From Plasmopara viticola (lineage: Eukaryota; Oomycota; Peronosporomycetes; Peronosporales; Peronosporaceae), in the NCBI GenBank assembly GCA_001695595.3, contig MBPM02000068.1, forward strand, positions 415,806-479,805: DNA of 64,000 bases, read 5' to 3'. Below the pieces are notes generated by a model. The model saw only the letters and a program-made list of their open reading frames with translations. It had not been told where the DNA came from and ran no database searches. Below, one piece after another: positions 5,401-51,789 of this stretch; positions within the stretch are counted from its first letter, which is position 1, and every line of letters begins with the position of its first letter. Position numbers and translations under genes: made by a program.

Positions 5401-6030
5401 TAATTTCGCTGCCTTTTGTTCATTGTGATGACATACGTACCAACGTCTAGATTATTCATCTAACTATTATTGGATGTGATCCAAGTCTTAGCTGGTGAGT
5501 CCGCTAGGTAAAGCGACCATCTGCCTCAAGAAGAGATTCTTTTTCGAAAATTCCGAATATAAAGCGGGTTTCAATGCACGACAAGCAGTTGACATACTGA
5601 AGTATTTTAGAGTTTACCGCCATGAAAATTCCCTGTGAAAATTGCAGAGTTTAGTGTAGTGCACATGGTCAAAGATCTAGTAATTACTATCTAGCATAGT
5701 GTTACGGGGTCACACAGCACCTTGCAAAAAGAAGGCGTGCAAATTGTGCTGAAGATCTTTCGATCAAGATTGTCCTTGATTTCCCGATTGCCCCCTACCC
5801 CAAGTGCTATGATTGATAATCCTGATTAAAGTTCCGTTCACGCCTGGTCTTGACAATGTGAAGTTTATGGAAGAGCGTTGTCAAATGTTCTTGAGAGCAA
5901 CATAAAACTAGCGAATGAACAAATTTATCAAAACCTTCCTGTATGGAAGTCGAGCTCGGGTCAGACTTGACAGGCGACAATTTTTACTACAATACTGACA
6001 GGAAAAACTATGCTACAATCACCAACCAAG
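2500..6030. other. Gene-poor stretch
   Basis: No supported gene. Open frames up to about 110 codons occur on both strands but have no recognisable motif. A cysteine-containing minus-strand frame at 4158-4391 overlaps a strong inverted repeat and is not called as a gene. The inverted repeat at 4343-4411 is listed separately. Confidence 0.45.
4343..4411. repeat. Long imperfect inverted repeat (hairpin)
   Basis: Two 29-nt arms (4343-4371 and 4383-4411) are reverse complements at 26 of 29 positions, separated by 11 nt. The arms begin AGCAGGTGCCAA and end with its complement. One mismatch would be a G-U pair in RNA. A transcript could form a near-perfect 29-bp stem. No transposon ends or target duplications were noticed. 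It may be a small-RNA precursor, a foldback relic or a chance local inversion. Confidence 0.7.
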
Positions 6031-6039
6031 TTATAAATG

Positions 6040-6240
6040 TCTCTCACGATACTCACAAACAACTACGCTTTGCTAAACCATACATTTCTGCCGCCACATA
6101 CTATACTCACACATCTTCTTACACGCGCTTAGAAGCCTTTTGTATAGCTCATAAGCTTGCAAAATTCTATGCCTGTCTAACCGACCAGTATCACATCACA
6201 CTGCTTCCAATAGAGTCTAGATTGCACACTTATGGGATAC
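6040..6240 (-). repeat. Dispersed copy of tRNA-array upstream module
   Basis: Read on the minus strand, this follows the order of the module found upstream of each tRNA-Asp in the 32-39 kb array: a GATACTGGTCG-like block, GACAGGCA, GAGCTATACAAAAGGC (array GAGCTGTATAAATGGC) and then GTGTGAGTATAGTATGTGGCGGCAG. It is clearly diverged. No tRNA-like part was recognised next to it. Ends are approximate. Confidence 0.6.
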
Positions 6241-6899
6241 AATTGCAGAGAAACGATTTTGGAGGTCGTTTGTTGAACGAGGCTTGCGCGGTGAAGTCGG
6301 TGAGGGAGGAGTCTTAGTTGCTTTGAGCAAATTGAGAAGTGATATCAAGAGGAGGGCTCTAACGTATTTCTGCCTTGCTACACCCTAACAGGTGGCTTTC
6401 AATCATCTACTGCGAACATTTAAAGGCCATCAGTCTTTTTTACTTTACCTGGCTCCTTACACATCCTGTTATAAAAGCTCTTTAACTTATAATGATTACG
6501 AGAAATCCTTCTGGTATGCGCCTATTCGTATGGATAGTACCAATGCATACTCATTTTCGAGATATTGTGTTTATATGACATAGTGACCGTACCCGCAGAT
6601 CTGTCGGTGACAATGGCTACACCGCGATAAGTACATTGTCTTTTCAACAGCCTGACTGACGTTGGCTGTAGGGATCTGAATGCAAGCCTCTCTAGTAAAA
6701 TTCTTGGTCGTATTAGTATATTCCTGATGACGAGCTCTCGAGTGATTGCTTAATCAGCAATTCGTGATCTTGATGAAGTGAAAATCCCCTCTTTTTCTTT
6801 AAAAATGAGCAAATAACAGATGAGCGAACGTGACCAAAGGAACCTTTATTGAACTCGAGATACTTACCTTTATACGACGACAAGCGTCATACACACATA
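6241..6899. other. Gene-free stretch between module copies
   Basis: Nothing recognisable was seen between the two minus-strand module copies. Short open frames here have no ATG-linked coding signal. Confidence 0.4.
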
Positions 6900-7090
6900 C
6901 AAATATAAGTGCCACACACGATACTCACACATTATCAAATTATTTATTTCTGCCGCCACATCCTTTGCTCGCCATGCCTCCACAAGCCCTCTATGCAGCT
7001 CACCAGCTTGCCAAAAGAGTATGCTTATCTGACCGGTACCCGATACGGTCCACGCATTCTACTGCTGCTTGCACTATTATTTTTCGTCAT
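6900..7090 (-). repeat. Second dispersed copy of upstream module
   Basis: Minus-strand copy of the same module as at 6040-6240. It shows GGTACCGGTCAGATAAGCA, CTTTTGGCAAGCTGGTGAGC and the GGCAGAAATA end in the order seen in the array. It is diverged and has no recognised tRNA part. Having two copies in the same orientation about 0.85 kb apart suggests an old tandem remnant. Confidence 0.55.
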
Positions 7091-10994: not shown

Positions 10995-11110
10995 GCATGA
11001 AGTGTGACAGGGTAGTGGCCGTTCAGACGTCAAAGTTTTTTGGCAACTAGGTGAGCTGTATAAAAGGCTTGTGAGCAAAGCATGTAGCAGCAGGAATAAT
11101 GAGAAATAGA
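10995..11110 (+). repeat. Dispersed copy of tRNA-array upstream module
   Basis: The block GGCAACTAGGTGAGCTGTATAAAAGGCTTGTGAGC..GCATGTAG is a diverged copy of the array module and is followed, as in the array, by a GAGTGGC block at about 11339 and then a tRNA-Asp-like relic at 11366. This is the only copy outside the main locus that keeps both halves of the unit. Confidence 0.65.
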
Positions 11111-11365
11111 TTTTTACTTAAGCATAAAGACCCGCTAGAGGTTTTATACACGAGAAGCTACTGAATTTTGCTGCTATGTTTTTTAGCCCGCACCCACTAG
11201 TACCTCTAGACGATGACATTATTAAACATTAATGGATAGGCTGGCATTTACGTGCAGGCGACCTTCACAGATGTATCGTGTCAACTATAAAAAAGACTTG
11301 AAGATAGTTGGCTTAAACACAACGAATTGCGATTATCATGAGTGGCCTATAGAACTTTGTTTGGC

Positions 11366-11442
11366 AATTGTAGTATAGCTTAGTAAATTCATAAGTATAC
11401 TCGCCTGTCACGGGCGACCCGGATTCGAAACTTAAACGGGAA
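11366..11442 (+). pseudogene. tRNA-Asp relic outside the array
   Basis: The segment keeps AAGTATACTCGCCTGTCACGGGCGACCCGGATTCGA, which matches the D-arm end, the anticodon arm with GTC in the loop, and the start of the T arm of tRNA-Asp. The D arm is expanded, and the acceptor stem and T-stem 3' side are damaged. After it comes TGTCTCTTCAAACTCGC, matching the array's downstream sequence. It is unlikely to be functional. Confidence 0.65.
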
Positions 11443-11693
11443 TGTCTCTTCAAACTCGCTTTCTCACTCGTTAATTTGCTGTTTCCAGAAAATACAACGA
11501 CGCTCTTACATGCCCCTTTACATCATTACAACCTCGAACAGTTGGTAAGTCAGGCACTCGGGGACTCGTCATAAGAAATAAGCTAACAAAATAGAGACAA
11601 AAACATTTCTGACCGAAATGACCTCACATATTTCTTCCCGACGTTTAATATGCTTTACAAGGGAATTTACTCTTTAAGAGGCTTTCAAAATGT

Positions 11694-11815
11694 CAAGTGT
11701 GCCATCGCAACTCTAACAAGAGCAGTGTGGCAAAGTACTGGTTCGTCAGACTTCTGGCAAATGGACGAGCTCTATAAATGGCTCATAACCACGCGCAAGT
11801 AGAGGGGTGAGCAAA
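11694..11815 (+). repeat. Dispersed copy of upstream module without tRNA
   Basis: It starts with AAGTGTGCCATCGCAACTCT (array AAGTGTGTCATCTAACTCT) and continues through GTACTGGTTCGTCAGAC, GAGCTCTATAAATGGCTC and AGTAGAGGGGTGAG in array order. The tRNA half is absent. A plus-strand open frame just downstream (11807-12088) contains short Ala/Thr/Lys repeats and is not judged to be a gene. Confidence 0.6.
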
Positions 11816-14540
11816 GTTTGCTCAATTGGCCTCTGCGTCAAGTCCGTGACTTGCAAAAAGGCAGAGTCAGCAACAAAGGCTACGCCAACAATCAAAGATA
11901 CGCCTGCAACTAGGGCTACGCCTGCCCGAAAGGCTGAACCAGCAGCGGCAAGCCTTAAAACGCTCATTTCCCTTTGCAATGGGATTCAGGCACCTAACGC
12001 GTACAGCTTTATCGGTTCGCAGCCCCTCAGTCTTACAACCAAAAGGGTGGTGCGGCAAGGCGCTGAGAGTACCTCAGGACTTGAGTGAGACTCGTAGTTC
12101 CGAGAATATTAATACCTCATGAGACATTCCATGGGTACGATCGTCTCGGAAAGGTGAAAGGTGTACGCCGACCCATGTCATTCTAGGACCGCGAAAAGTT
12201 TGACGAAACAATATTTTGCAAAGCTGACCCTTTCCAACGGTAAAGTTTTGTATCTAGCCATACTTCATCTCTTGATATACATATTTGACTTCCCTCTTTC
12301 GTGTTCGTTCAACAGATATTCTATCGTATATTTTGGGCAGACGTACTCGATCTTTCGCTCTGGTGATTGTTTCAGCTGACGTTAAGCAAAACTAGATACC
12401 TGTTTTCGTAGAAAACCTTGTCGCACATTGGGGACTTTAATGAAGAAACTATCTGAGCCTCTTATCTACTTATTATAGAAGCATCTCTGTTCTGAAGAGC
12501 AAGCAGAGCGCAAATTCTGCGATGTTTAATCTTTTCGCTTCGTCTTCCTCTCTATCGGAGAATTGCACGCTGAAGACATCGGCAAGCTCATTCCCGATCG
12601 CCGAAATATTTTTATCCAAAGCTTTACGATTAACCACGGGTCGCTATTCGACACCGTTGTTTGCGGAAAAAGGTAACAAATAATTGCTGGATCAATAGAC
12701 AGCCTAAAGGGCCTCATTTCCGATCCGGTGGGAGTTTGCTGGTGCGTTTCTAGACACCAAGTTTAAAAACCATGTCGGATGTAGGAATCCTTCGAGTCTT
12801 CAGCCAGAAAACAACGTTCGCTGCCATATGACTGATCCGAGACATCTTCGTCGATGATGAAAGATGTTTTGTATATTTAAAGGTATTTTATATTAAGGAA
12901 CATCACCTCTGAGATAATTGGCTTACGCTGTAGCCAAGAGCTATGAAGGTTCGAGGTTGAGAGACTTAACCACCTCGATAATGCCTTCAATCAGAGCATG
13001 CCTGCGAAATACAACGCTCTATATTATTTCTGCAGACAAGGCCTTAGGTCTTGCCACGAAGTCGCTAGGATTCGTTTTCGTATTGCATTTCCATGCTCTA
13101 TCAGCGGAGCCATGCTACCCTTTCTAAGTGGTACTTTGCACACGTGTGATCTGATTGCAATATTTTGTTATCCGTTCTTGGTGGCTTTATATTGTCCACT
13201 CTTGGAACTATGTAATTGTGTGTTGCAGACATATGTTACCCGCTTGCAAAACTTTGCTACCTGCAGCTAATGCTCTATATTTACCACCTGTAGAGCTATA
13301 GGACCTACAACACTTTTTAAGCCTCTCTGGCACCCGATGCCACCAGTGGAACTTTGCTGCCCGCTAATGAAAGTTCTAGATGTGTTTTGAAATGTTCCTT
13401 CGGTAAAACATGTGTTAAGTTACAGGGCCTATTGGGCGTATGGCCTACCTGGGTACCCATGGCTTTTTATTGCCGAGTAATCTAGTGCTCGACTATTTTG
13501 AGCCAAAGCATGCCAAGGTCGAATCATACTTGTCCATATAAAGAGCAAGAACTGGATTCGACTACATAAAATCATTACATTTTACAGCCAGGTCAGTGCT
13601 AATTTAAAAGCTTCAGAGTTGTTCAGTTAGCAGGCCTCAGTGCATACTTATCATTTCCTGTGCAACTTAAACAAATCGACAACAAGGCCGTCGGAAGCAT
13701 TATTTGTCTTCAGTATATAAATATATTCCTACGACGGTCCTCGAGAGCCTTCACCAACTTTTAATGGTCTTTGTGATGCAAAGTGCACTAACAGCGTCGT
13801 TGTATGCTTTAAAAACAACAAACAGCGAGTGAATGAACGAGACAGAAGAGTGTCTCGTCCGGAATTGAATAAGATCACTCGCGTGGCAGGCAAGTATACT
13901 AATTTCTAAACCTAAAAAGTAAGGCTGCTCCAAAGCCTTCCTCGCCTCAGAGACTCTCTGGCGGGTAAACCTTACAAGGCTTGTCTCTTGCAGTACAGGT
14001 GCCCTTGTAAATGACGCACCCCTAAGTGTCGTGGGCCGAAGCAACATTTAATTGTGTTGGCTTTGTCACTGTGAAATGATCCAGCCTACTGGCAGCCCTC
14101 TCAACTGCTATTTTAGTTATCGTTATGACCAATACGACTTTTAGATAAAATACCAGAGCGCCATCCTTTCTATTAAATCCAATCCATGTCTTAGTGAAGG
14201 AGGATGTAAATGGCTGTCTGAAACAAAGCTATTTCACGTCTTAAAAGAATGATGGACAGCAGGAATCCTACCAGCGATTTTGTTTCCTATGCACTGAATT
14301 TATGGCGTGTGAACAGTCCATCCTCGTCATCAGAATATAGAATATCGTCGTAAGGTAGCAAGGACTATTCCAAAAAAACAAAACTTGTTATAATGATTTT
14401 TATATCTACGTTTTAACAACCAATGGCACTAATGAGGTCAATAATCGCTTTGAGATATATTTCCTGGAGCCCTTAGCAGCTATATTAGTCGATGCATATG
14501 CGTTACCCCGAAAATAACTGAAGTCGGGTGCCTCCCCACG
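11816..14540. other. Gene-poor stretch
   Basis: No gene is supported. Several open frames of 60-98 codons exist on both strands (for example 12918-13270 plus and 13751-14047 minus) but have no motif, no clear coding composition and no credible context. No tRNA or mobile element was recognised. Confidence 0.45.
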
Positions 14541-25253: not shown

Positions 25254-25388
25254 TCTCAAGAGGGCCGCTTTTGCGTAGCCATTCAATCTTGACCAAAGTG
25301 CACCTGCGCAAGTCGATTACCGGTATTTTGTCATACTGCTAATCTGAAGTAGCAATTAACAGTATTCCCGACAAGCGAAATTCCAAGG

Positions 25389-27385: not shown

Positions 27386-28516
27386 CTAAGGTTCAGACGA
27401 AGCAGCAATTGCATTAAACATTTGCTTCCGCGCGATCGCAAAGATGGCAACTAATGAGGCCAGCTGCAGTTCCTCCATCGTGCCATTAGACAGCCGGTGC
27501 TCGAGATGAGCCAGTTCGTCGTATATATACATGCGGCACCGCGGCGGCAGCTCTAATTCCATCGTGTAGCGATACACGTCCTGCAGGATATCGCTAGTTG
27601 CATAGCCCTTGATCTTTTGCATCTCGGCACACTTGCGCACAGCTGTTGGAAAGTTCTCGTTAAAAAGCCAGCGAGTTACCGACTCAATATCCTTTGGCAG
27701 CGGATTGCCCGTACAAAGGTACACATTAGCCTCATTGACGACATCGTGGGCCATGGACGTTGCCTGCAAGACGTTAAGGATGCGGCGCATGTCGCCCTGG
27801 CCCAAACGCAGAATTGCGTCAAAGCCGTCTTCGGTGATATTTAACCTAGTAACAGCAGCACAGCAGCAACCTCATTGTCAAAGTCATTTTCAGCATTGAA
27901 AAGCTCCAAAGACGCACTTTTCAAGATGTGCAATGTGCTTGACTCGGCCAATGACTTGGCTCTCACTTAACGGGGCGAAGCGAAAGCGCGTGCATCGCGA
28001 CTGCAGCGCCGGGATGATCTTGCTTACGTAATTACAGATGAGGCAAAACCGTGCATTTTTTGTGTATTTTTCAATGACACGGCGCAACGAAAACTGCGCA
28101 TCATTGGTCATGGAATCAGCTTCGTCGAGTATGATGAGTTTGATGCCCTGACTAAAAAGCTTTTTGGTGCCAGCAAACTCCTTAATCTGATTGCGTACAA
28201 CGTCGATGCCACGGTCATCTGATGCATTAAGCTCCAGTACCATGGAGCTGTAGCTTTTGCCGTAGAGCCGTCGTGCCGCTGCAATGATCATAGATGTCTT
28301 GCCTGTACCCGGAGGGCCATAAAACAGCAGGTGGGGTAGCTTTTGTGCATCAATAAGGCGATTAAGCGTTGATATGATTTCTTGGTGGGCTATAAGATCA
28401 TCTAAAGATGACGGGCGATATTTCTCTACCCATGGCCATGTTTCGGTTGAGCGGTTACGGCTTGAGATTCCCTCAAACGCCGGCTCCTCCACTAACTTCA
28501 TTTCTACGTCCGACAT
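27386..28516 (-). CDS. RFC5: Replication factor C subunit 5 (clamp loader AAA+ ATPase)
   Basis: Two exons, 28516-27918 and 27845-27386, joined across a 72-nt intron (GTGCGT..ACTAG, phase 2) into a 352-residue protein. Start ATG 28516 (MSDVEMKLVEEP). RFC loads the PCNA sliding clamp on DNA. Evidence: WVEKYRPSSLDDLIAHQ, Walker A GPPGTGKTS (about 67-75), LNASDDRGID, Walker B LIILDEAD (about 127-134), and RFCLICNYVSKIIPALQSRC with the SRC arginine-finger motif (about 173-175). After the junction comes ITEDGFDAILRLGQGDMRR (sensor 2), then a C-terminal collar. The sequence is closest to the human RFC5/yeast Rfc3 type rather than RFC2 or RFC4. Length is close to the usual 340. The gene is convergent with eRF3 (197 bp between stops). 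Open sequence above 28516 to 28642 is treated as leader. Confidence 0.92.
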
Positions 28517-28642
28517 CAGGCAGTCAATTCTGCAAAATTGATGAAATATCAATTTCCGGGTTTCTTGGCTACCGGTCTTTAGAGATATGAGCCTTGATTC
28601 GATGAATTTTAGTGCCCAATTTACTAGCGGAGATACGTCCAA

Positions 28643-31477
28643 TTAAGCTATTTATTTATTCCCACGGCCTTTTATATGAAAGGCTAAACGTATTCTATCG
28701 GTATCTATACCGGTTTCCGCACTTTCAGTACTATGTGACTGGTACCCAATCCTATGCCCACGCCGACATATTGACTATCTGAACCCTCGTAAAGTTCCAA
28801 AATGATAAAATCACCTTCCGTATTTGTCGGACAAGCAGATCGCGCTACTCGCCCGACATGCTCAGGTTAATTGGCAAACAATGGAGCTCTCTTGGTCGCT
28901 ATCGCACACAGGGAGCGTGCGAATCGATGATCGTTCACTATGTGTGTGCAATCGATTGCCAGTATCATCCTATGTTGATCCTGTCGATAGCTTTGTCAAT
29001 GCACTGCCCAAAACTCTGAATTCAAAGTGGCTAAACTTAAAGATATTCTCTATTTAGATTGCAGGCCGCAACGATGAAGCGCACTTTGAGAGAAGTACAG
29101 ATATAGACAGACCGACTCCTTTAAATTGTCTTAAAAAGGCACTTCTTCGTTTTTGAAATTCGAGTGAAGTACTCTCCTGACTTTAGTCCAGTCCCAGTAG
29201 GCTTGAGTGGTGCCGAGCAAAGCAAAATTTGCTACAATAAAGTAGAAGCATCTTTCGTGTCCGCCCCGAAGAAGGCCAGAGAAGAGGTTGTTGTCTCACC
29301 CGAGGGCCTTGAAAAATCACTAAGAGAAGCGGTGCCCTCACAGCCAGGGAGCCAGTAGTGGCAGGGCACCTTACGAGAAAAGCTTTGAGCCCTCACAGTA
29401 GGTTTGTTGTTTATACACACCTTGGATTCTAAGCCCAGAACTCTTAAAGCAGCGGTGGATTGTAGTCTGTGCATGCAAGTATATTTACCCCTTTTGCGAC
29501 TCAGATGCCTCTGATACGTTTAGGTTTTTCGCACGCCGGCAAACAATCGTAATCAGCCAAACTATGCTGACAGGTGCTCGAAGGGTGAGCAACTATATAC
29601 GTTAGTTGCCGTCCGAATGGCTAATGGCGTGGTTCTAATCTTCAGAATAAAACTGACCTGGTAGTAACATTTGACAATTTCGACAGCCAAGGTCAATCGT
29701 CTTCTTTCACATGGCCAAGTATGACTCTTGTTGGGATTCAGTAAGCACGAGCACTGAATAAATTGGCAAAGCAAGACCAGAGAGGTCAGCCGCTCGATTC
29801 GCGTTACAGGATTTAAATTGCACCCATGTAAGGCGTACGGGCTCCTTATCAGAGAGCATGGGAAAGAACAGGTCAAAGACTGATATGAGACATATATACG
29901 TGATGGTGCCTCAGAAGCCTTACCCCAGCAAACAATAAAAGCTTGCTGAGAGCCCCGTCCTCGCTAGAGATGACGCTTTAGAGGGGCGTTACATAGCTCA
30001 GCAGGTGGATTAATTAGCGCTACTAATCGCGATTTTCGAAATGTCGCTACCCGATGGAATAGGTAAGTAATACAGATGTGTAATGAAGTATCACCAAGAG
30101 TGGTGGCATAGCTCCGCTAGAAGAGAATGAGAATCCGAAACTTTACCTATTTTTGGATATCACGAACGACCCAGTAGTTGACGAAGAGAGCTAATCCTCA
30201 ACATTAAACAGTGGCTGTGTCACATCAGAGAAGGCACTTCTGGAAGAATTAGAGCTACCAGATTAGCTTTTTGAACTCGAGTTGTTTGATATTAAGTAAA
30301 TTTGACACTTTTTTTGACGGACACTTCATTAACGTAAGATTTTTGGTCTAGGCAAACTGTCTGATTCTTGCTAGACTGATAGATGCGAATTACTTACAAA
30401 ACATAATGTTGGTAAATTGTCGAAGGTGCTTTAATAACGATAAGGTTCCTTCAAGGATATGTATACATACACCGAATTTGACGAAGAGATTATATATATT
30501 AGCGTGCGCTACGCTAATCGTAAAGGGGTCAAAAATTTAATATACCAATTCTTAAAGTATTCTCAGATATGACGCCCAGCGACTAATTAACAAAAACTTT
30601 ACCGGAAAGAAAAGTAAGGCACGCAACTGATCTCGTGTTAGGTATTGTCATGCGACAATGACTGCTAGGAGTGTAATGTAGGCTTATTGATGTCTTGTAC
30701 GCCAGAAAGTCGTAGAAAGGGTGTGTTCAAAACCAAACGACTAATTTACGTTGATGATAAGCCGAACATTGCAGCAAATTCTGCACATACAGTTATTTTA
30801 AAAAGGACGTGTAGCTACTCAGCATGTCCTGTATAGTCTCGTGGATGACTACCATCAAATTTGATTCGGCTAGTCAAAAAAGTCGGTAAGTATGCCTAGC
30901 AAAATGCGATGAGAGACCAGTGATTCCACAGCGGGTATTAATCGTCCCTACTACATTATTCAATGCGGTTTTACTCATTTATAATCTCAGAATGATTTTG
31001 TCTTAAAGAAAATTCACAGTGAGCTGAAGCAAAGCTGTTTTTGATCGAGCAAAGATGTTGTAATTATTTGTAATCACGAATTCTTATGTATTAATGACAC
31101 CCACGACCCAAAGCTGTAAATGAATATAAGAGCGGAAGCTATATTGATTTTGCAATTTTTGTCCGTTTAAATATTTGTGCCTACCTCCAGCTTTCGTTGG
31201 TATTCTGTTGTCACCGATCACAAACAAAAGTGGAAATAAGTTAACCAAATAGGTTCCATCGCATTTATACAACTTGAGAAATAAATTGTTTGACTTTGTT
31301 TGCTCACGCCAGCCCATGTATTTGAAAGCTTGCACTTGAAGCTTTGTTGTATCAAAGCTATTGTTTGAATGTACATGCTATTCGGACGGTGTGTGTGGAG
31401 GACTGTATTGCGTCTTGCTACTAGAAACAATGCTACGGGATCACAGCTCAAAGCAGGTGCGCATGATGTTCAATTTT
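28643..31477. other. Gene-free desert
   Basis: No supported gene, tRNA or mobile element in about 2.8 kb. Short open frames (for example 29164-29358 plus and 29562-29876 minus) have no motif. The sequence is AT-rich with no clear repeat. It separates the gene island from the tRNA array. Confidence 0.5.
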
Positions 31478-31542
31478 TTCTAGCGAGTAACAATTCAATA
31501 TCTAACACGCGGATGGCCCGCATAAACTTTCATGACGGGAAG
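31478..31542 (+). pseudogene. Strongly decayed tRNA-Asp relic left of array
   Basis: It aligns to the array tRNA from TTCTAGCGAGTA through AACACGCGGATGGCCCGCA to GACGGGAAG, and is followed by GTGTATGAGGTCTCGTATGC like array copies 3, 7 and 11. The anticodon loop and D arm are destroyed. Confidence 0.55.
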
Positions 31543-31982
31543 GTGTATGAGGTCTCGTATGCCAGATCGCTTGTTCGCTAATTAAGATTCGTCAACGAAG
31601 CGCTCACAACCCTTAAAATCATGAAGATCACAAACACTTGGTCAGGTAAACTTGACATTAGCACTATACTTATGTACTGGAGACAAATAATGTTTATGGG
31701 GGGTTGTCCCCGTGTCCTTCCGATTGACTTTCTTAAGGTATTTACAATCTCACCAAGGCTTTCAAGTAGCTACGTGTACATCGTGACTTTATTGAAAGAA
31801 ATGTAATGGGGAGCTGGTTGGTTTGATTGGCAAACATTTTGGGCAAGATGGTGAGCAGTACAAATAATTTTGAGTGCATGAACCTTGAGAAGAAGGTAGC
31901 ATGTATAACTTTCTATAGCAGAGCGCTTTCTTATATCTGTAAGTGGCATCTATGATATTTTCTGGTGGTTGTACCACAACGT

Positions 31983-32040
31983 TACCTATTAGTATAGTGG
32001 CTGGTATACCCATATGTAACGCAAGTGACCCAGGAAGTCT
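31983..32040 (+). pseudogene. Truncated tRNA-Asp relic left of array
   Basis: ATTAGTATAGTGGCTGGTAT and GACCCAGGAAGTC match the tRNA-Asp D arm and the start of the T arm. The anticodon stem is broken (CCCATATGTAACGCAAG) and the 3' part is missing. It is preceded by the GTAAGTGGCATC block and followed by TTTTTGGTCTCGC as in array units, so it is an older unit. Confidence 0.65.
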
Positions 32041-32544
32041 TTTTGGTCTCGCACACAAACTCGCTTTTGACTGTATTGCGTCAACTTCAACGACTCCTTA
32101 CAAAAATATTTCATCATCAAGACCACATACACTTGGTTGCGAATCACTTGAAAACACGCCATGAGCAAAATACTATTATGTCAAAGGCATAAAACGTTTC
32201 TGACGAAGCTTGATCTTCTATTCTTATCGCTGCCATTTACAAAGCTAGTTACTATTACACTGAGACTTTTAGATTGCTAAGTGTGAGATAGTAATTCTGC
32301 TAAGAGTTGTATAGCAGAACATCCGACAGGCAGGTTTTGAAAGCAGTGTAATACGGTACTGGTCGATCAGACAGGCAAACACTTTTGGCCAGCTAGTGAG
32401 CTGTATAAATGGCTTGTGCACGCGTGCATGTAGAGGAGTGAGTAGGGTATGCGGCAGCAGGGATATACAGCTACAAACCGCGAAACAATTTAAGGGTATC
32501 GTGAGTGGCATGAATTACATCGTTGAGTGATTGTGGCATAACGA

Positions 32545-32616
32545 TTCTCGTAAGTATAGTGGTAAGTATACCCGCTTGTCACGCAGGTGACCCGGGGTCA
32601 ATTCCCGGACGTAAAG
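32545..32616 (+). pseudogene. tRNA-Asp copy 1, degenerate
   Basis: 72 nt with GTC in the anticodon loop, but the anticodon stem has a C-A mismatch (CCCGC/GCAGG), the T loop has lost TTC (GTCAATT), and the acceptor 3' strand reads ACGTAAA. Probably not functional. It is the leftmost unit of the array. Confidence 0.75.
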
Positions 32617-33083
32617 GCATCTTTGGTCTCGTTCGCATACTGCGTTTTTCAATTTTTTTTAAGTATTTGGCGACACTCACGAACACTTCGCATCATCAAG
32701 GCCACAAATAGCTGGGGAGGAAGTCACTCAAGGACCAGTTCAAAGCAATACACTTCTATACAGAAGTCAAAAATTGTTTCTGATGTAGTTTAACCCAAAT
32801 CCTTCCGGCTGACGTCAAGGCTACTAAAAAGGCCTTTGAACCTTTCTATTCGCTAAGTGTGTCATCTCAACGCTTTTGAAAGCAGTGTGATACGGCACTG
32901 GTTGATCTGACAGGCAACTGCTTTTGGCCAGCTAGTGAGCTGTATAAATGGCTTGTGAACGCGTGCATGTAGAGGAGTGAGTAGGGTATGTGGCAGCAGA
33001 GATATACAGCTTTAAACCGCGAAGCAATTTGAGAGTATTGTGAGTGGCATCAATTTCATCGTTTAGTGTTTGTGGCATAACGA

Positions 33084-33146
33084 TTCTCGTGAGTATAGTG
33101 GTTAGTATACCCGCCTGTCACGCGGGTGACCCAGGTGGACGGGAAG
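33084..33146 (+). pseudogene. tRNA-Asp copy 2, T-arm deletion
   Basis: Acceptor, D and anticodon arms are intact, but the T arm has lost 9 nt (reads CCAGGTGG), leaving 63 nt without a B box. Not expected to be transcribed by Pol III or to fold. Confidence 0.85.
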
Positions 33147-33600
33147 GTGTTTTTGATCTCGTTCGCATACTTCTTTCTGGGAGTTTCTCGAGCATTTGGC
33201 GACACTCGCAAACACTTCACATCATCAAGACAACGAATAGCTCACTCAAGGACCAGTTCAAAGCAATACACTTATATACTGAAGTCAAGAATTGTTTCTG
33301 ATGGAGCTTCACTCCGGATCCTTCCGGCTGACGTCAAGGCTCTCAAAAAGGCCTTTGAGCCTTTCTATTCCCTAAGTATGTCATGTAACTCTATTGAAAC
33401 CATTTGACACGGCACTGGTTGATCTGACAGGCAACTGCTTTTGGCCAGCTAGTGAGCTGTATAAATGGCTTGTGAACGCGTGCATATAGAGGGGTGAGTA
33501 GGGTATGTGGCAGCAGAGATATACAGCTATAAACCGCGAAGCAATTTGAGAGTATTGTGAGTGGCATCAATTACATCGTTTAGTGATTGTGGCATAACGA

Positions 33601-33672
33601 TTCTCGTGAGTATAGTGGTTAGTATACCCGCCTGTCACGCGGGTGGCTCGGGTTCAATTCTAGGACGGGAAG
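33601..33672 (+). pseudogene. tRNA-Asp copy 3, variant T arm
   Basis: Full length with GTC anticodon and a good anticodon stem. The T stem is weakened (TCGGG against CTAGG) and the B box reads GGTTCAATTCT. It is followed by only four T residues. Shares this variant with copies 7 and 11. Activity doubtful. Confidence 0.65.
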
Positions 33673-34256
33673 GTGTTTTAGGTCTTATTTGCAAACTTGA
33701 TTTTGATATTTTCAAAAGCATTAGGGGCACTCACACAAACATTTCGCATTATCAAGACCACGAATAGTTGGGGAAGAGGTCACTTGAGGACCAAATTAAA
33801 GCAATACATTTATATTGTTTTTGGTATTTTTTCGGGCATTTGGCGATAATCACAAACACTTCGCATCATCAAGACCACGAATATCTGGTGAACAACTCAC
33901 TCGAGGACCAGTTCAAAGCAATACACCTTTATACTGAAGTCAAGAATTGTTTCTGATGGAGCTTGACTCCGGATCCTTCCGGCTGACGTCAAGACTATTA
34001 AAAAGGCCTTTGAGCTTTTCTATTCCCTAAGTGTGTCATCTAACTCTATCAAAACCAGTGTGACACGGCACTGGTTGATCTGACAGGCAACTGCTTTTGG
34101 CCAGCTAGTGAGCTGTATAAATGGCTTGTGAACGCGTGCATGTAGAGGAGTGAGTAGGGTATGCGGCAGCAGAGATATACAGCTATAAACCGCGAAGCAA
34201 TTTGAAGGTATTGTGAGTGGCATCAATTACATCGTCTAGCGTTTGTGGCATAACGA

Positions 34257-34328
34257 TTCTCGTTAGTATAGTGGTTAGTATACCCGCCTGTCACGCGGGT
34301 GACCCGGGTTCAATTCCCGGACGGGAAG
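34257..34328 (+). tRNA. tRNA-Asp(GTC) copy 4, intact
   Basis: 72-nt cloverleaf: acceptor TTCTCGT/ACGGGAA, anticodon arm CCCGC-CTGTCAC-GCGGG with GTC, T arm CCGGG-TTCAATT-CCCGG, discriminator G. No intron; CCA is not encoded. A T5 Pol III terminator follows within 4 nt. Confidence 0.95.
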
Positions 34329-34913
34329 GTGTTTTTGGCCTCGTTCGCAAACTTGATTTTGATATCTTCGAAAGCATTAAGGGCACTCACACAAACATTT
34401 CGCATCGTCATGACCACGAATAGTTGGGGCAGAAGTCACTCAAGGACAACTTCAAAGCAATGCATTTTTATTGTTTTTGGTATTTTTTCGAGCATTTGGC
34501 GATACTCACAAACACTTCGCATCATCAAGACCACGAATATCTGGTGAAGAAATCACTCGAGGACCAGTTCAAAGCAATACACCTATATACTCAAGTCAAA
34601 AAATGTTTTCTGATGTAGTTTGACCCCGAATCCTTCCGGCTTACGTCAAGGCTATTAAGGAGACCTTTGAGCCTTTCTATTCCCTAAGTGTGTCGATGTA
34701 ACTTTATTGAAAGCAGTGTGATACAGCACTGGTTGATCTGACAGGCAACTGCTTTTGGCCAGCTAGTGAGCTGTATAAATGGCTTGTGAACGCGTGCATG
34801 TAGAGGAGTGAGTAGGGTATGCGGCAGCAGCGATATACAGCTATAAACCGCGAAGCAATTTGAGGGCATTGTGAGTGGCATAATTACATCGTTTAGTGTT
34901 TGAGGCATAACGA

Positions 34914-34985
34914 TTCTCGTTAGTATAGTGGTTAGTATACCCGCCTGTCACGCGGGTGACCCGGGTTCAATTCCCGAATGGGCCT
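34914..34985 (+). pseudogene. tRNA-Asp copy 5, damaged 3' end
   Basis: D and anticodon arms are intact with GTC, but the 3' side reads CCCGA then ATGGGCCT, which breaks the last T-stem pair and two acceptor pairs. No T4 run follows directly. Probably inactive or unstable. Confidence 0.7.
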
Positions 34986-35452
34986 GTGTTATTGGTCTCG
35001 TTCGCAAACTTGATTTTGGTATTTCCTCGAGCATTCAGCAACAGTCACAAACACTTCGCATCATCAAGACAACAAATTGCTGGTGAAGTAGTCACTCAAG
35101 GATCAAATCAAAGCAATACACTTATATACTGAAGTCAAGAATTGTTTCTGATTTAGTTTGATCCCGAATCCTTCCGGCTTACGTCAAGGATATTAAGGAG
35201 ACCTTTGAGCCTTTCTATTCGCTAAGTGTGTCGATGTGACTTTATTGAAAGCAGTGTGATACGGCACTGGTTGATCTGACAGGCAACTGCTTTTGGCCAG
35301 CTAGTGAGCTGCATAAATGGCTTGTGAACACGTGCATGTAGAGGAGTGAGTAGGGTATGTGGCAGAGGAGATATATAGCTATATACCGCGAAGCAATTCG
35401 AGGGTATTGTGAGTGTCATTAAGTTCATCGTTTAGTGATTGTGAAATATTTT

Positions 35453-35524
35453 TTCTCGTGAGTATAGTGGTCAGTATACCCGCCTGTCACGCGGGTGACC
35501 CGGGTTCAATTCCCGGACGGGAAG
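35453..35524 (+). tRNA. tRNA-Asp(GTC) copy 6, intact
   Basis: All stems pair. The only change is in the D loop (AGTGGTCAGTAT). Followed by GTGTTTTTG, a T5 terminator. Its 5' flank differs from most units (GAAATATTTT) and matches copy 12. Confidence 0.93.
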
Positions 35525-35989
35525 GTGTTTTTGATCTCGCTCGCAAACTTGTTTCTGGGAGTTTCTCGAGCATTTGGCGACCCTCACAAACCCTTCGCAT
35601 CATCAAAACCACGAATAGCTAGTAAAGAAGTCACTAAAGGACCAGTTCAAAGCAATACACTTATATACTGAAGTCAAGAACTGTTTCTGATGGAGCTTGA
35701 CTCCGGATCCTTCCAGCTGACGTCAAGACTATTGAAGAGACCTTTGAGCCTTTCTATTCCCTATGTGTGTCATCTAACTCTATTGAACCAGTGTGACACG
35801 GCACTGGTTGATCTGACAGGCAACTGCTTTTGGCCAGCTAGTGAGCTGTATAAATGGCTTGTGAACGCGTGCATGTAGAGGAGTGAGTAGGGTATGTGGC
35901 AGCAGAGATATACAGCTATAAACCGCGAAGCAATTTGAAGGTTTTGTGAGTGGCATCAATTACATCATTTAGTGATTGTGGAATATTAA

Positions 35990-36061
35990 TTCTCGTGAGT
36001 ATAGCGGTTAGTATACCCGCCTGTCACGCGGGTGGCCCTGGTTCAATTCTAGCACGGGAAG
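35990..36061 (+). pseudogene. tRNA-Asp copy 7, variant T arm
   Basis: Same T-arm decay class as copies 3 and 11 (CCTGG against CTAGC), with GTC kept and the D loop changed to AGCGGTTA. A T4 run follows. Likely weak or inactive. Confidence 0.65.
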
Positions 36062-36645
36062 GTGTTTTAGGTCTTATTTGCAAACTTGATTTTGGTATCT
36101 TCAAAAGCATTAAGGGCACTCACACAAACATTTCGCATCATCAAGACCACGAATAGCTGGGGACGAGGTCACTCGAGGACCAATTCAAAGCAATACATTT
36201 ATATTGTTTTTGGTATTTTTTCGAGCATTTGGCGATAATCACAAACACTTCGCATCATCAAGACCACGAATATCTGGTGAAGAAATCACTCGAGGACCAA
36301 TTCAAAGCAATACACTTCTATACTGAAGTCAAGAATTGTTTCTGATGGAGCTTGACTCCGGATCCTTCCGGCTGACGTCAAGACTATTAAAGAGACCTTT
36401 GAGCCTTTCTATTCCCTAAGTGTGTCATCTAACTCTATCAAAATCAGTGTGACACGGCACTGGTTGATCTGACAGGCAACTGCTTTTGGCCGGCTAGTGA
36501 GCTGTATAAATGGCTTGTGAACGCGTGCATGTAGAGGAGTGAGTAGGGTATGCGGCAGCAGAGATATACAGCTATAAACCGCGAAGCAATTTGAGGGTAT
36601 TGTGAGTGGCATCAATTACATCGTCTAGTGTTTGTGGCATAACGA

Positions 36646-36717
36646 TTCTCGTTAGTATAGTGGTTAGTATACCCGCCTGTCACGCGGGTGACCCGGGTTC
36701 AATTCCCGGACGGGAAG
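36646..36717 (+). tRNA. tRNA-Asp(GTC) copy 8, intact
   Basis: Identical to copy 4 over the 72-nt tRNA. All stems pair, and a T5 terminator follows. Confidence 0.95.
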
Positions 36718-37172
36718 GTGTTTTTGATCTCGTTCGCAAACTTGTTTCTGGGAGTTTCTCGAGCATTTGGCGACACTCACAAACACTTCACATCATCAAG
36801 ACCACGAATAGCTCACTCAAGGACCAGTTCAAAGCAATACACTTATATACTGAAGTCAAGAACTGTTTCTGATGGAGCTTGACTCCGGATCCTTCCGGCT
36901 GACGTCAAGACTATTGAAGAGGCCTTTGAGCCTTTCTATTCCCTAAGTGTGTCATCTAACTCTATCAAAATCAGTGTGACACGGCACTGGTTGATCTGAC
37001 AGGCAACTGCTTTTGGCCAGCTAGTGAGCTGTACAAATGGCTTGTGAACGCGTGCATGTAGAGGAGTGAGTAGGGTATGTGGCAGCAAAGATATACGGCT
37101 ATAAACCGCAAAGCAATTTGAAGGTATTGTGAGTGGCATCAATTACATCGTCTAGTGTTTGTGGCATAACGA

Positions 37173-37244
37173 TTCTCGTTAGTATAGTGATTAGTATACC
37201 CGCCTGTCACGCGGGTGACCCGGGTTCAATTCCCGGACAAGAAG
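37173..37244 (+). tRNA. tRNA-Asp(GTC) copy 9, near-intact
   Basis: Anticodon and T arms are intact. Two changes: D loop AGTGATTA (loss of one of the invariant GG pair) and acceptor 3' strand ACAAGAA, giving one C-A mismatch. T5 terminator follows. May be active but weakened. Confidence 0.75.
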
Positions 37245-37710
37245 GTGTTTTTGATCTCGTTCGCAAACTTGTTTGTGGGAGTTTCTCGAGCATTTGGCGA
37301 CACTCACAAACACTTCGCATCATCAAGACCACGAATAGCTGGTGAAGAAGTCACTTAAGGACCAGTTCAAAGCAATACACTTATATACTGAAGTCAAGAA
37401 CTGTTTCTGATGGAGCTTGACTCCGGATCCTTCCGGCTGACGTCAAGACTATTAAAAAGGCCTTTGAGCCTTTCTATTCCCTAAGTGTGTCATCTAATTC
37501 TATCAAAATCAGTGTGTCACGGCACTGGTTGATCTGACAGGCAACTGCTTTTGGCCAGCTGGTGAGCTGTATAAATGGCTTGTGAACGCGTGCATGTAGA
37601 GGAGTGAGTAGGGTATGTGGCAGCAGAGATATACAGCTATAAACCGCGAAGCAATTTGAGGGTATTGTGAGTGGCATCAATTACATCGTTTAGTGATTGT
37701 GGCATAACGA

Positions 37711-37782
37711 TTCTCGTGAGTATAGCGGTTAGTATACCCGCCTGTCACGCGGGTGACCCGGGTTCAATTCCCGGACGGGAAG
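37711..37782 (+). tRNA. tRNA-Asp(GTC) copy 10, intact body with weak terminator
   Basis: All stems pair; the D loop is AGCGGTTA. The downstream T run is interrupted (GTGTTTCTG), unlike the T5 of other intact copies, so termination may be poor. Confidence 0.88.
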
Positions 37783-38247
37783 GTGTTTCTGATCTCGTTC
37801 GCAAACTTGTTTCTGGGAGTTTCTCGAGCATTTGGCGACACTCACAAACACTTCGCATCATCAAAACCACGAATAGCAGGGGAAGAAGTCACTCAAGGAC
37901 CAGTTCAAAGCAATACACTTATATACTGAAGTCAAGAATTGTGTCTGATGGAGCTTGACTCCGGATCCTTCCAGCTGACGTCAAGACTATTGAAGAGACC
38001 TTTGAGCCTTTCTATTCCCTAAGTATGTCATCTAACTCTATTGAAATCATTTGACACGGCACTGGTTGACCTGACAGGCAACTGCTTTTTGCCAGCTAGT
38101 GAGCTGGATAAATGGCTCGTGAACGCGTGCATGTAGAGGAGTGAGTAGGGTATGCGGCAGCAGAGATATACAGCTATAGACCGCGAAGCAATTTGAGGGT
38201 ATTGTGAGTGGCATCAATTACATCGTTTAGTGATTGTGGCATAACAA

Positions 38248-38319
38248 TTCTCGTGAGTATAGTGGTTAGTATACCCGCCTGTCACGCGGGTGGCCCGGGT
38301 TCAATTCTAGGACGGGAAG
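38248..38319 (+). pseudogene. tRNA-Asp copy 11, variant T arm
   Basis: GTC anticodon arm intact. The T stem has CCGGG against CTAGG with one mismatch and one wobble, as in copies 3 and 7. T4 run downstream. Activity doubtful. Confidence 0.65.
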
Positions 38320-38889
38320 GTGTTTTAGGTCTCATTTGCAAACATGATTTTGATACCTCCAAAAGCAGTAAGGGCACTCACACAAACATTTCGCATTATC
38401 ACGGGAAGAGGTCACTCGAGGACAAATTCAAAGCAATACATTTATATTGTTTTTGGTATTTTTTCGAGCATTTGGCGATAATCACAAACACTTCGCATCA
38501 TCAAGACCACGAATATCTGGTGAAGAAATCACTCGAGGACCAGTTCAAAGCAATACACCTATATACTAAAGTCAAAAATTGTTTCTGATTTAGTTTGACC
38601 CCGAATCCTTCCGGCTTACGTCAAGGCTATTAAGGAGACCTTTGAGCCTTTCTATTCGCTAAGTGTGTCGATGTGACTTTATTGAAAGCAGTGTGATACG
38701 GCACTGGTTGATCTGACAGGCAACTGCTTTTGGCCAGCTAGTGAGCTGCATAAATGGCTTGTGAACGCGTGCATGTAGAGGAGTGAGTAGGGTATGTGGC
38801 AGCAGAGATATACAGCTATATACCGCGAAGCAATTCGAGGGTATTGTGAGTGGCATTAATTTCATCGTTTAGTGATTGTGGAATATTTT

Positions 38890-38961
38890 TTCTCGTGAGT
38901 ATAGTGGTCAGTATACCCGCCTGTCACGCGGGTGACCCGGGTTCAATTCCCGGACGGGGAG
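38890..38961 (+). tRNA. tRNA-Asp(GTC) copy 12, intact
   Basis: All stems pair, with extra G-T wobbles in the acceptor (ACGGGGA). Same D-loop variant as copy 6. T5 terminator follows. Last unit of the array; its spacer carries the foldback at 39096-39151. Confidence 0.92.
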
Positions 38962-39095
38962 GTGTTTTTGATCTCGCTCGCAAACTTGTTTCTGGGAGTT
39001 TCTCGAGCATTTGGCGACCCTCACAAACCCTTCGCATCATCAAATCCACGAATAGCAGGTGAAGAAGTCACTCAAGGACCAGTTCAAAGCATTAC

Positions 39096-39151
39096 AAAAA
39101 CAATTCTTGACTTCAGTATACACTTATATACTGAAGTCAAGAATTGTTTTT
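39096..39151. repeat. Perfect 25-bp foldback in last array spacer
   Basis: Arms 39096-39120 and 39127-39151 are perfect reverse complements with a 6-nt loop (CACTTA). The right arm is the normal array sequence (TATACTGAAGTCAAGAATTG); the left arm is an extra inverted copy found only in this unit. This looks like a local template-switch or inverted-duplication event. Confidence 0.92.
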
Positions 39152-39312
39152 GATGGAGCTTGACTCCGGATCCTTCCAGCTGACGTCAAGACTATTGAAG
39201 AGACCTTTGAGCCTTTCTATTCCCTATGTGTGTCATCTAACTCTATCAAAATCAGTGTGACACGGCACTGGTTGATCTGACAGGCAACTGCTTTTGGCCA
39301 ACTAGTGAGCTG

Positions 39313-40404
39313 ACCACATTCTGACGATTGCTCAAGACTTGAGGCCCCTTGAGGCTTGAACGGAGTGAAAAAAAGGGAAAATATCCGTGGAGATGATCCA
39401 CTACACGAAGCCTTTTTATCACGACCTAGGTCATTCATCCGTGTAATCTATCTATTTTCAAAGGCTCTATATGCGTCTTACCATGCTAATTCGTGAGTCA
39501 TCATCACCATACCACTGTGTTTGCGGCATCCTTAACACGCCGGTTCCGCCTTTACCCTTTCCGACAGATACGATATCCACAAACAACAATTTAAGGTTAC
39601 CTGCGCAAATATAAAGAATAAGGGAAGTGACCAGATGTCACTGATGTCATTCAGAAGATGAAGCTGTGTGCATTACAACGGACCTCGACGAGATACCTAG
39701 TTCGATTTCCATAGAATTGAATCGATGATAAACAAGGAAAAAAGTGAGCGTTCGATCACACCCCCATAGTGTGCGGGACTATTTTCCCAAAAAGAGTTGA
39801 AAAGTTACGAGTATCCCGCTTAAGACAGCTTTGTCCTTGCGTGTGGGCTCCACTAGCAAAATTGCATCGTCTATGGCGTTGACAATTCGACATACTAGTA
39901 AAAAATACAATACACTCTTACTTGAGCAATATCTTTTTACTTTACGCGTATTAGAAAAGGAAAGCGGACGACAGTACCGCGAACGCAGACGTAAAATACG
40001 ACAAGTGTGCACAAATAAGTGCTAGACGTGCATGTTTCTCTTAATCAAAACAGGGAGCTCGTGGCTATTTATGTCCATGCAAAACAAAAAATCGAAATGG
40101 AGAGACATTTTTTTCTTTCACGTGAGGAAGATGTAATGCTAGATCAGCTACAAATATCTGCTTCGAGTCTGGCATCATTGATCTGTCTAAGTATGATCAG
40201 CACTTCTTGCAATCAAGTATGCGACTTAATCACAGCTAATCATACAGAACATTGCTAATTTCGTTTGACGAGTAGACTTTTTTGTAATGGAATCCAATCA
40301 ATAAAAAAAAAGATTGAGCCGCCAAACTCAATGTCTTTCTTGTTATTGAATATTCCAACAGAAACATCTGAGTCGATTAGACGGAGATCCTTGCGCCTGC
40401 GGAG
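39313..40404. other. Gene-free spacer
   Basis: Sequence between the tRNA array end and the 568-bp duplication. Short open frames at 39831-40258 show no motif. Nothing supported. Confidence 0.45.
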
Positions 40405-41540
40405 CGCAGGAAAATCATTAGCCTACTTCTAACTCTTAATAACTGCTATGGACTAGAATACAGAGAATACAAATGCAGAGAGTGATTTAAATAAAAACGA
40501 AATTAAGGTCTTACCGGCGGGCAATGTTTGACCGTTAGTAGACCGGCACAGATTCTTCACGTTGACGCGAATGATATGTTCTCTTGCTTTGGCTTCTGAT
40601 GAACACACAATAGTCGAGCAACATCTTTTGCTATCGTTGCTTTAAGAACATCTAGCACCACGCACGAGGGGCTTGTTTGAGTTCATTTACACTTTTCCGA
40701 AATACACACACATCAATGCATTTGCAAGTGAGAGCAAAAAAGTTCCTGTTTCCGATGACGAATTTCAGTAAAGTCATTACACTTTGTGGTGGTACATTGT
40801 GACATGACCGTCGTCACCGGCAGTATTCCCGGTAACGGCTTTAACGTAACTTAATAAAATATTCCCAAGATGCATGCATTAGTACTATCCATAGGAATAG
40901 GCGACTATACAGCTTCCAACCGGAATACAGTTCCGGACGTCCCATAATCATTGGAAGCCAAGAGACATTGATCGCAGGAAAATCATTAGCCTACTTCTAA
41001 CTCTTAATAACTGCTATGGACTAGAATACAGAGAATACAAATGCAGAGAGTGATTTAAATAAAAACGAAATTAAGGTCTTACCGGCGGGCAATGTTTGAC
41101 CGTTAGTAGACCGGCACAGATTCTTCACGTTGACGCGAATGATATGTTCTCTTGCTTTCGCTTCTGATGAACACACAATAGTCGAGCAACATCTTTTGCT
41201 ATCGTTGCTTTAAGAACATCTAGCACCACGCACGAGGGGCTTGTTTGAGTTCATTTACACTTTTCCGAAATACACACACATCAATGCATTTGCAAGTGAG
41301 AGCAAAAAATTTCCTGTTTCCGATGACGAATTTCAGTAAAGTCATTACACTTTGTGGTGGTACATTGTGACATGACCGTCGTCACCGGTAGTATTCCCGG
41401 TAACGGCTTTAACGTAACTTAATAAAATATTCCCAAGATGCATGCATTAGTACTATCCATACGAATAGGCGACTATACAGCTTCCAACCGGAATACAGTT
41501 CCGGACGTCCCATAATCATTGGAAGCCAAGAGACATTGAT
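40405..41540 (+). repeat. Recent 568-bp tandem duplication
   Basis: Units 40405-40972 and 40973-41540 differ at four positions noticed by eye (about 99% identity). Each unit ends with the first 175 bp of an LTR (from TGTGACATGACCGTCG), so the copy made a partial extra LTR start upstream of the element. No gene is inside. Confidence 0.93.
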
Positions 41541-41810
41541 GGCTGAAAGTAATATGGAATGTGTAAAAAGCCAGATGAAATATAGAAGAATGATAGCTCT
41601 TGTAATGGTAGCAGTAGATGGCTGAGAGTCACTGGTTAGGCTGTAGCACGAAAAAAAAGTCGTCAGATGTCTCCATAATGTCACTTCTCAATTTGCTTTG
41701 AGCAGTTAGCACCCCTCCTCATTCCCCAACTTCGCCCCGCCCGCGCCTCAGCCTCGTCCGACGACCGACTTTAACAAGCTTCTTTCGCGACTATACTATA
41801 TGGATGCACT
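41366..41810 (+). repeat. 5' LTR of decayed Ty3/gypsy element
   Basis: Begins TGTGACATGACCGTCGTCACCGG and shares ordered blocks with 46986-47430: GGTAACGGCTTT, GCATTAGTACTATC, CATAATCATTGG-like, GGTTAGGCTGTAGC, CACTTCTCAATTTGCTTT and CGCCCGCGCCTCAGCCTCGT. The right boundary is uncertain. Divergence from the 3' LTR is large, so the insertion is old. Confidence 0.75.
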
Positions 41811-51780: not shown

Positions 51781-51789
51781 AATACCACA

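What the first reader, a model, noticed from the sequence alone, without database searches (positions are those of the whole stretch)
32270..39312. Tandem tRNA-Asp array in mosaic 0.52-0.66 kb units
Twelve tRNA-Asp(GTC) copies sit head-to-tail inside large units that also carry about 450-580 bp of non-tRNA sequence. Five copies fold perfectly (4, 6, 8, 10, 12), one is near-intact (9) and six are damaged. Variant classes (3/7/11 with a weakened T arm; 6/12 with shared flanks) are interleaved, which points to unequal exchange or gene conversion rather than one amplification. Decay is worst on the left. Single-isoacceptor amplification this dense may affect Asp decoding, form a chromatin barrier, or be a selfish unit.
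Basis: seen in the sequence. Interest (0 to 1): 0.75.

Follow-up and report, generated by a model that had tools for sequence, protein, structure and literature searches.

The report
Short, decaying edge of tRNA-Asp array
A downy mildew genome carries long head-to-tail rows of the gene for one transfer RNA, and this stretch is a short, partly broken row of that kind: ordinary for this group of organisms, but it ends at what looks like a chromosome rearrangement and has an unusually well preserved piece of DNA upstream of each copy.

Summary
Two more, heavily decayed units precede them (array 31505-39315). By size and scaffold count the genome is Plasmopara viticola INRA_Pvit_2. The same unit forms larger arrays in it: 68, 67 and 13 tRNA-Asp genes in the fetched parts of contigs C3, C210 and C338. 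C171 and C210 are allelic to the left flank, and C210 runs through at least 70 units where this contig has 12. Only copies 4 and 8 keep every stem pair and every invariant position tested. Seven of 12 carry G at U8, and that class fills 39 of 70 units on C210. This is best read as the degraded edge of a monomeric tandem tRNA array shaped by unequal exchange and conversion, a kind already described in Phytophthora infestans; an effect on Asp decoding is unlikely. Two less ordinary points: a 100-bp block around a TATA box ~140 bp upstream of the tRNA is the least variable part of the unit (0 of 100 differences between two unit classes, found post hoc), and the array's right edge looks like a rearrangement junction lying exactly at that TATA box.

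The parts
31505..31793 (+). heavily decayed partial unit (profile 240-537)
   Evidence: nhmmer E 3.3e-21; same piece on C210 and C171
31796..32288 (+). heavily decayed unit (profile 2-525)
   Evidence: nhmmer E 1.1e-40; same piece on C210 and C171
32340..39248 (+). twelve tandem tRNA-Asp units; starts 32340, 32879, 33396, 34052, 34710, 35248, 35785, 36441, 36968, 37506, 38044, 38685
   Evidence: the profile was built partly from these units
39249..39312 (+). partial last unit, ending just before the TATA box: junction with right flank Y
32545..32616 (+). tRNA-Asp copy 1, damaged
   Evidence: Rfam 39.8 bits; 3 broken pairs
33084..33146 (+). tRNA-Asp copy 2, damaged (63 nt, T arm partly lost)
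   Evidence: below Rfam gathering score
33601..33672 (+). tRNA-Asp copy 3, damaged T stem, G8
34257..34328 (+). tRNA-Asp copy 4, consensus
   Evidence: Rfam 62 bits; all pairs; all tested invariant positions
34915..34984 (+). tRNA-Asp copy 5, damaged acceptor and T stem
35453..35524 (+). tRNA-Asp copy 6, all pairs, but G8
35990..36061 (+). tRNA-Asp copy 7, damaged T stem, G8
36646..36717 (+). tRNA-Asp copy 8, consensus
   Evidence: Rfam 62 bits
37173..37244 (+). tRNA-Asp copy 9, one acceptor mismatch, G19->A
37711..37782 (+). tRNA-Asp copy 10, all pairs, but G8 and no T4 run
38248..38319 (+). tRNA-Asp copy 11, damaged T stem, G8
38890..38961 (+). tRNA-Asp copy 12, all pairs, but G8
37526..37625 (+). 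low-diversity TATA block (profile 21-120), shown for unit 10; every unit has one
33815..33931 (+). ~117-bp internal duplication (profile ~302-419), shown for unit 3; also in units 4, 7, 11
5843..6206 (-). relic of a unit
   Evidence: nhmmer E 3e-42
6638..7039 (-). relic of a unit
   Evidence: nhmmer E 2e-32
11001..11820 (+). relic of one interrupted unit and the start of a second
   Evidence: nhmmer E 2.8e-08, 8.4e-29, 1.6e-09
13688..13911 (-). relic of a unit (tRNA and downstream part)
   Evidence: nhmmer E 2.8e-25

Best explanation
The short allele and degraded edge of a monomeric tandem tRNA-Asp(GTC) gene array. Shown: units of about 537 bp (or ~656 bp with an internal duplication), each with one tRNA gene, 9 of 12 followed within 14 nt by four or more T; the same unit in larger, more uniform arrays elsewhere in this genome; an allelic contig with the same left edge and at least 70 units; mosaic units; a defective variant amplified on that contig. 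Inferred: Pol III transcribes the intact copies from the internal A and B boxes; copy number changes by unequal crossing-over and conversion; homogenisation keeps interior copies alike while edge copies escape it and decay; the right edge was made by a break in a unit joined to an unrelated flank.
For: tRNA calls and pairing; larger arrays with the same unit on C3, C210, C338; allelic left flank on C171 (98.5% over 14.9 kb) and C210 (97% over 6.5 kb) with the same two decayed edge units; gradient on C210, 4 of 49 units passing next to the flank and 17 of 21 further in; segment-wise changes of nearest relative; the same array organisation and edge pattern in Phytophthora infestans (PMC9584435, section 9 read in full).
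Against: No expression data. No reads, so 12 units could be a collapsed or chimeric assembly. The least variable part of the unit is not the tRNA but the upstream block, which plain tRNA-gene amplification does not predict. The T-A restoration of T-stem pair 50:62 in 17 of 82 units leaves open that some G8 copies are under selection.
Confidence: 0.85

Rival explanations
1. Assembly artefact: a longer array was collapsed, or haplotypes were chimerically joined through the repeat, giving an apparent 12-unit array between flanks Z and Y.
For: C3, C210, C338 and C171 end at or near array sequence, so the assembler did struggle; three contigs cover flank Z, more than a simple diploid needs; C29 joins Y to another flank without an array.
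Against: The 12 units differ from one another and from the closest units elsewhere by several per cent, so they are not copies of one collapsed unit; the array-Y, X-array and X'-Y junctions fall at matching places without homology between the joined sequences, unlike a repeat-driven join. The assembly is described as PacBio-based (PMC9130769, passages).
Confidence: 0.12
2. A tRNA-derived mobile element (SINE-like) that happens to lie in tandem.
For: Fragments of 35-109 bp lie on C47, C5, C257, C24, C2, C7 and C9.
Against: Units are head to tail; the fragments come from different parts of the unit; the one isolated unit (C9) shows no target duplication. The genome searches were capped.
Confidence: 0.02
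3. The unit's working part is the upstream TATA block (external promoter, transcript start or protein-binding site), the tRNA being a passenger in this array.
For: Lowest diversity of any 100-bp window in both arrays; 0 of 100 differences between class consensuses against 40 of 365 elsewhere outside the tRNA (Fisher P 6.5e-5; longest identical run 115 bp, P 0.0007); stands alone, sharply bounded, at C24 (two duplicated copies) and C2.
Against: Chosen after seeing the profile; a conversion tract gives the same pattern; relics support it only weakly (331 of 429 against 1023 of 1412, P 0.053; a first alignment had one relic misaligned); the sequence between block and tRNA is not conserved; no match in the tRNA-Lys stretch or the tRNA-Pro units.
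Confidence: 0.2

Closest known systems
Monomeric tandem tRNA gene arrays of Phytophthora infestans (Matson et al. 2022, PMC9584435)
   Same: One tRNA gene per ~0.5-kb unit (tRNA-Cys 513 nt), long homogeneous arrays, variants grouped near an edge, growth ascribed to unequal crossing-over.
   Different: Another genus; tRNA-Asp is not discussed in the section read; here the edge is mostly defective copies, a defective class is amplified, and allelic length differs.
tRNA gene arrays of Entamoeba (PMC2652664, passages)
   Same: Tandem tRNA units homogenised by concerted evolution.
   Different: Units there hold up to 5 tRNA genes and, in E. histolytica and E. dispar, short tandem repeats between genes; none here.
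Human 1q23.3 tRNA variable-number tandem repeat (PMC4041453, abstract)
   Same: Copy-number-variable alleles (9-43 units); little besides the tRNA genes and one short element is conserved in mouse.
   Different: 7.3-kb units that bind CTCF; here ~0.54-kb units with one tRNA and no known insulator site.

Membership tests
Oomycete monomeric tandem tRNA arrays | same tRNA gene repeated head to tail, one per unit | tested here: met
   12 copies, all with anticodon GTC
Oomycete monomeric tandem tRNA arrays | unit of about 0.5 kb | tested here: met
   517-658 bp; 537-538 bp for most of C3
Oomycete monomeric tandem tRNA arrays | near-identical interior, variants grouped at an edge | tested here: met
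   C3 60 of 68 tRNAs identical; C210 gradient; the C68 array is all edge-like
Oomycete monomeric tandem tRNA arrays | oomycete genome | tested here: met
   92,937,831 bp, 358 contigs equal the P. viticola INRA_Pvit_2 figures; no marker phylogeny was made
Oomycete monomeric tandem tRNA arrays | copy number confirmed by reads | not testable with these tools
   no reads held
Entamoeba-type tRNA arrays | several tRNA genes per unit | tested here: not met
   one per unit
Entamoeba-type tRNA arrays | short tandem repeats between genes (E. histolytica, E. dispar) | tested here: not met
   Tandem Repeats Finder: 0 rows
tRNA-derived SINE | dispersed copies with target-site duplications | tested here: not met
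   one isolated unit, no duplication; fragments only elsewhere; searches capped
Functional tRNA-Asp gene set | all stems paired and the tested invariant positions kept | tested here: not met
   2 of 12 copies; the list of invariant positions is recalled
Functional tRNA-Asp gene set | transcription | not testable with these tools
   no RNA data held

The most novel reading that the evidence does not exclude
Each unit is bipartite: a discrete ~100-bp TATA module ~140 bp upstream of the tRNA is held more constant than the tRNA, even in arrays of mostly defective tRNAs; it acts as an external promoter or binding site, and its open state also makes it the preferred break point. The array's right junction lacks the TATA box and the next ~21 bp; the isolated, circularly permuted single unit on C9 opens just downstream of that; 8 of 18 fragment endpoints fall at profile positions 60-140 (scan P 0.02, post hoc). 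Arrays would be rearranged, and new ones seeded, by breaks and reinserted circles at a Pol III-type promoter.
Probability: 0.2. Interest if true: 0.6.

Novelty: new member of a known kind. Interest (0 to 1): 0.36.

Why it matters
It extends the tandem tRNA arrays known from Phytophthora to a downy mildew locus, shows an allelic size difference (12 against at least 70 units, as assembled), and shows a defective tRNA class being amplified, which suggests that array growth can be a by-product of recombination and not selection for more tRNA. If the upstream block proves functional it would be an unexpected external element for a tRNA gene, and a natural system for asking whether Pol III promoters are breakage points.

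Tried and rejected
Another RNA in the unit: a permissive Rfam search of 31000-39600 gave tRNA, weak tRNA-like matches and microRNA matches below their gathering scores, the latter all on the palindrome at 39083-39165. Another RNA at the fragment loci: on L012-L019 only tRNA matches; on L039 and L040 one sub-threshold match. C36:427183 matches the short TATA pattern but not the rest of the block and was treated as chance. Reading C29 as a plain empty site was dropped, because C29 holds the X flank twice, in opposite orientation. Plasmid records: no match. A first stem-pair count was void through a wrong end-gap setting and was replaced. A first relic comparison misaligned one relic; its replacement weakened the result. 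C2:274607-274712 (75%) was seen and not examined. A genome-wide tRNA count was not possible: 63 of 13,680 first-look candidates were scored. Paper searches; in their listings I saw no paper on tRNA-Asp arrays in Plasmopara, which is all that is claimed.
Full report
What is there. The window is C68:415806-479805 of a genome of 92,937,831 bp in 358 contigs. Size and scaffold number equal those of the Plasmopara viticola INRA_Pvit_2 assembly (92.94 Mb, 358 scaffolds, PacBio) given in PMC9130769 (passages seen); that is the basis of the species name. tRNA-Asp(GTC) genes lie on the + strand in units of 517-658 bp. A unit profile, built from the 12 window units and every fourth C210 unit, places 12 units at 32340-39248, two far more decayed units at 31505-32288, a partial unit at the right edge, and relics on both strands at 5.8-13.9 kb. 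The window outside the array, read backwards, gave no match at E <= 0.01. In the other stretches examined (E <= 0.001) the profile found, outside the arrays, the same two edge units on C210 and C171, one single unit on C9 and the fragments described below; it found nothing in C3:2600000-2648300, C338:1-16980, the 10 kb left of the window or 6 kb of C29.

Condition of the tRNAs. Of 12 copies, 5 (4, 6, 8, 10, 12) form all 21 stem pairs at 72 nt, copy 9 has one mismatch and 6 are damaged; 9 of 12 have a run of four T within 14 nt downstream, copies 1, 5 and 10 not. Folding of seven copies agrees, although for 6, 10 and 12 the centroid structure lacks some stems. At twelve positions that are invariant in tRNAs (list recalled, not from a call), U8 is G in 7 of 12 and A in 1, and copy 9 has G19->A; copies 4 and 8 pass everything. 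The same test passes 21 of 70 units on C210, 11 of 12 on C338 and 59 of 67 on C3. Not scored: the partial last units of C68, C210 and C338, the first and last of 69 on C3, and the units of C171 (3) and C9 (1).

The family in this genome. In the fetched stretches ARAGORN found 68 tRNA-Asp on C3 (2648858-2685392, contig end 2685544; 60 of 68 identical), 67 on C210 (22338-62616, contig end 63015), 13 on C338 (contig end 24154), 10 on C68 and 1 each on C171 and C9. This is not a genome-wide count. C210 is graded: 39 of its 70 units carry G8, all within units 1-48; 4 of units 1-49 and 17 of units 50-70 pass. A defective class has been multiplied, not only left to decay. In C68 plus C210, T-stem pair 50:62 is G-A (broken) in 17 and T-A (restored) in 17 of 82 units, so selection on folding in this class cannot be excluded.

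Alleles. C171:70000-84879 matches C68:434145-449045 at 98.5%. C210:16000-22504 matches C68 at 97%, and C210 and C171 agree at 99% over 6.9 kb. All three share the two decayed edge units. So the left edge is shared by descent while the length differs: 12 units here, at least 70 on C210. That three contigs cover this flank is more than a simple diploid needs. On the right, the SMC-gene region is 99% identical between C68 and C29, as expected of alleles.

The right junction. On C29 the right flank (Y) is joined to another flank (X') with 14 bp between and no array. On C338 a copy of X is joined to the array at profile position 93, and X stops where X' does. In the window the array stops just before TATAAAT (profile position 64-65) and goes over into Y. 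The two array ends and the two flank ends look like one break in a unit (about 28 bp lost: the TATA box and ~21 bp after it) and one break at X|Y (14 bp lost), joined crosswise. C29 holds X twice in opposite orientation, so translocation, inversion and deletion cannot be told apart. Misassembly remains possible; the absence of homology at the junctions speaks against it.

Mosaic structure. With the unit cut into four segments, the nearest relative of most window units changes from segment to segment; unit 6 stays nearest to 12 throughout, and 12 is nearest to 6 in three of four. This supports unequal exchange and conversion. Units 3, 4, 7 and 11 share a ~117-bp internal duplication.

A conserved upstream block. 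Pairwise diversity is lowest in a 100-bp block around TATAAAT (profile 21-120; TATA at 65, tRNA at 206): 3.8% in the 12 window units and 2.9% in C210 units 1-49, against 7.7% and 7.1% in the tRNA and 11.5% and 10.3% downstream of it. Between the consensus of 50 C3 units and of 39 G8 units of C210 the block has 0 of 100 differences, the rest outside the tRNA 40 of 365 (Fisher P 6.5e-5), and the longest identical run, 115 bp, has P 0.0007. The region was chosen after seeing the profile, and conversion could give the same pattern. The check on eight relic pieces is weak: 331 of 429 identical in the block against 1023 of 1412 in leader plus downstream, P 0.053. The block stands alone, sharply bounded and 82-88% identical, at C24 (two duplicated copies) and C2. 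tRNA-Pro units on C47 have a TATA ~40 bp upstream instead; neither they nor a 1-kb tRNA-Lys stretch of C27 match the block in the profile search.

Fragments elsewhere. Pieces of 35-109 bp lie on C47 (inside a tRNA-Pro array), C5, C257, C24, C2, C7 and C9. C9 also holds one isolated unit that starts at profile position 116 and ends at 97, one unit in circular permutation, without target duplication. This fits a reinserted circle, but one case proves nothing. Of 18 endpoints 8 lie at positions 60-140 (binomial P 0.003); the best 81-bp window holds 9, scan P 0.02 (post hoc).

Comparison with what is known. Matson et al. 2022 (PMC9584435; passages, outline with abstract, section 9 in full) report 11,056 tRNA genes in P. 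infestans, about 64% in tandem arrays of one gene, a 513-nt unit for tRNA-Cys and variants grouped near array edges, and propose growth by unequal crossing-over. The array here meets these features. Entamoeba arrays (PMC2652664, passages) differ in multi-gene units and short repeats; the human 1q23.3 tRNA repeat (PMC4041453, abstract) is a parallel for allelic copy-number variation. A satellite-DNA paper on Phytophthora parasitica (PMC7290008, passages) notes that array borders diverge more than centres.

Verdict. Real, correctly described, and a new member of a known kind. The conserved TATA block, and the junction lying at it, are the points worth following.

Noticed in passing
39083-39165: Near-perfect palindrome (TTCTTGACTTCAGTATA...) in the last unit, from an inverted copy of about 20 bp of the unit itself; it scores as a microRNA-like hairpin below threshold on both strands.
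   Followed up: partly
L013 2112-2220 (C47): A 109-bp piece of the tRNA-Asp unit, 98% identical to a window unit, lies inside a tRNA-Pro(AGG) array with ~350-bp units: sequence moved between arrays of different tRNAs.
   Followed up: partly
L012 3050-3572 (C9:491049-491572): One isolated, circularly permuted tRNA-Asp unit with a consensus tRNA; possibly a reinserted circle.
   Followed up: partly
58894-59210, 60580-60895, 8726-8919: A dispersed repeat of ~315 bp, also found on C24, C7 and C29; on C7 it lies next to a 39-bp piece of the tRNA-Asp 3' half.
   Followed up: no
40402-41269: Direct repeat of at least 300 bp, copies 568 bp apart, 99% identical, just right of the array.
   Followed up: no
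41360-43300: Moderately repeated sequence: about 65-80% matches on many contigs (719 first-look candidates, 40 scored).
   Followed up: no
7782-8684 and 9656-10444: Tandem pair of similar helical proteins; the second matches Pfam Apolipoprotein below its cut-off; the protein at 1086-2291(-) matches LEA_4 below its cut-off.
   Followed up: no
L041 (C27:2600-3600): Another array: two tRNA-Lys(TTT) genes 557 bp apart.
   Followed up: partly
C29:756031-760952 and 813176-818167: The X flank occurs twice in opposite orientation on one contig, 91% and 99% identical to C338: a large inverted duplication beside an array.
   Followed up: partly
22989-28642 and 49627-57953: Conserved genes flank the array: methyltransferase, eEF1A-type GTPase and AAA ATPase on the left, ThiF/E2-binding and SMC proteins on the right.
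   Followed up: partly
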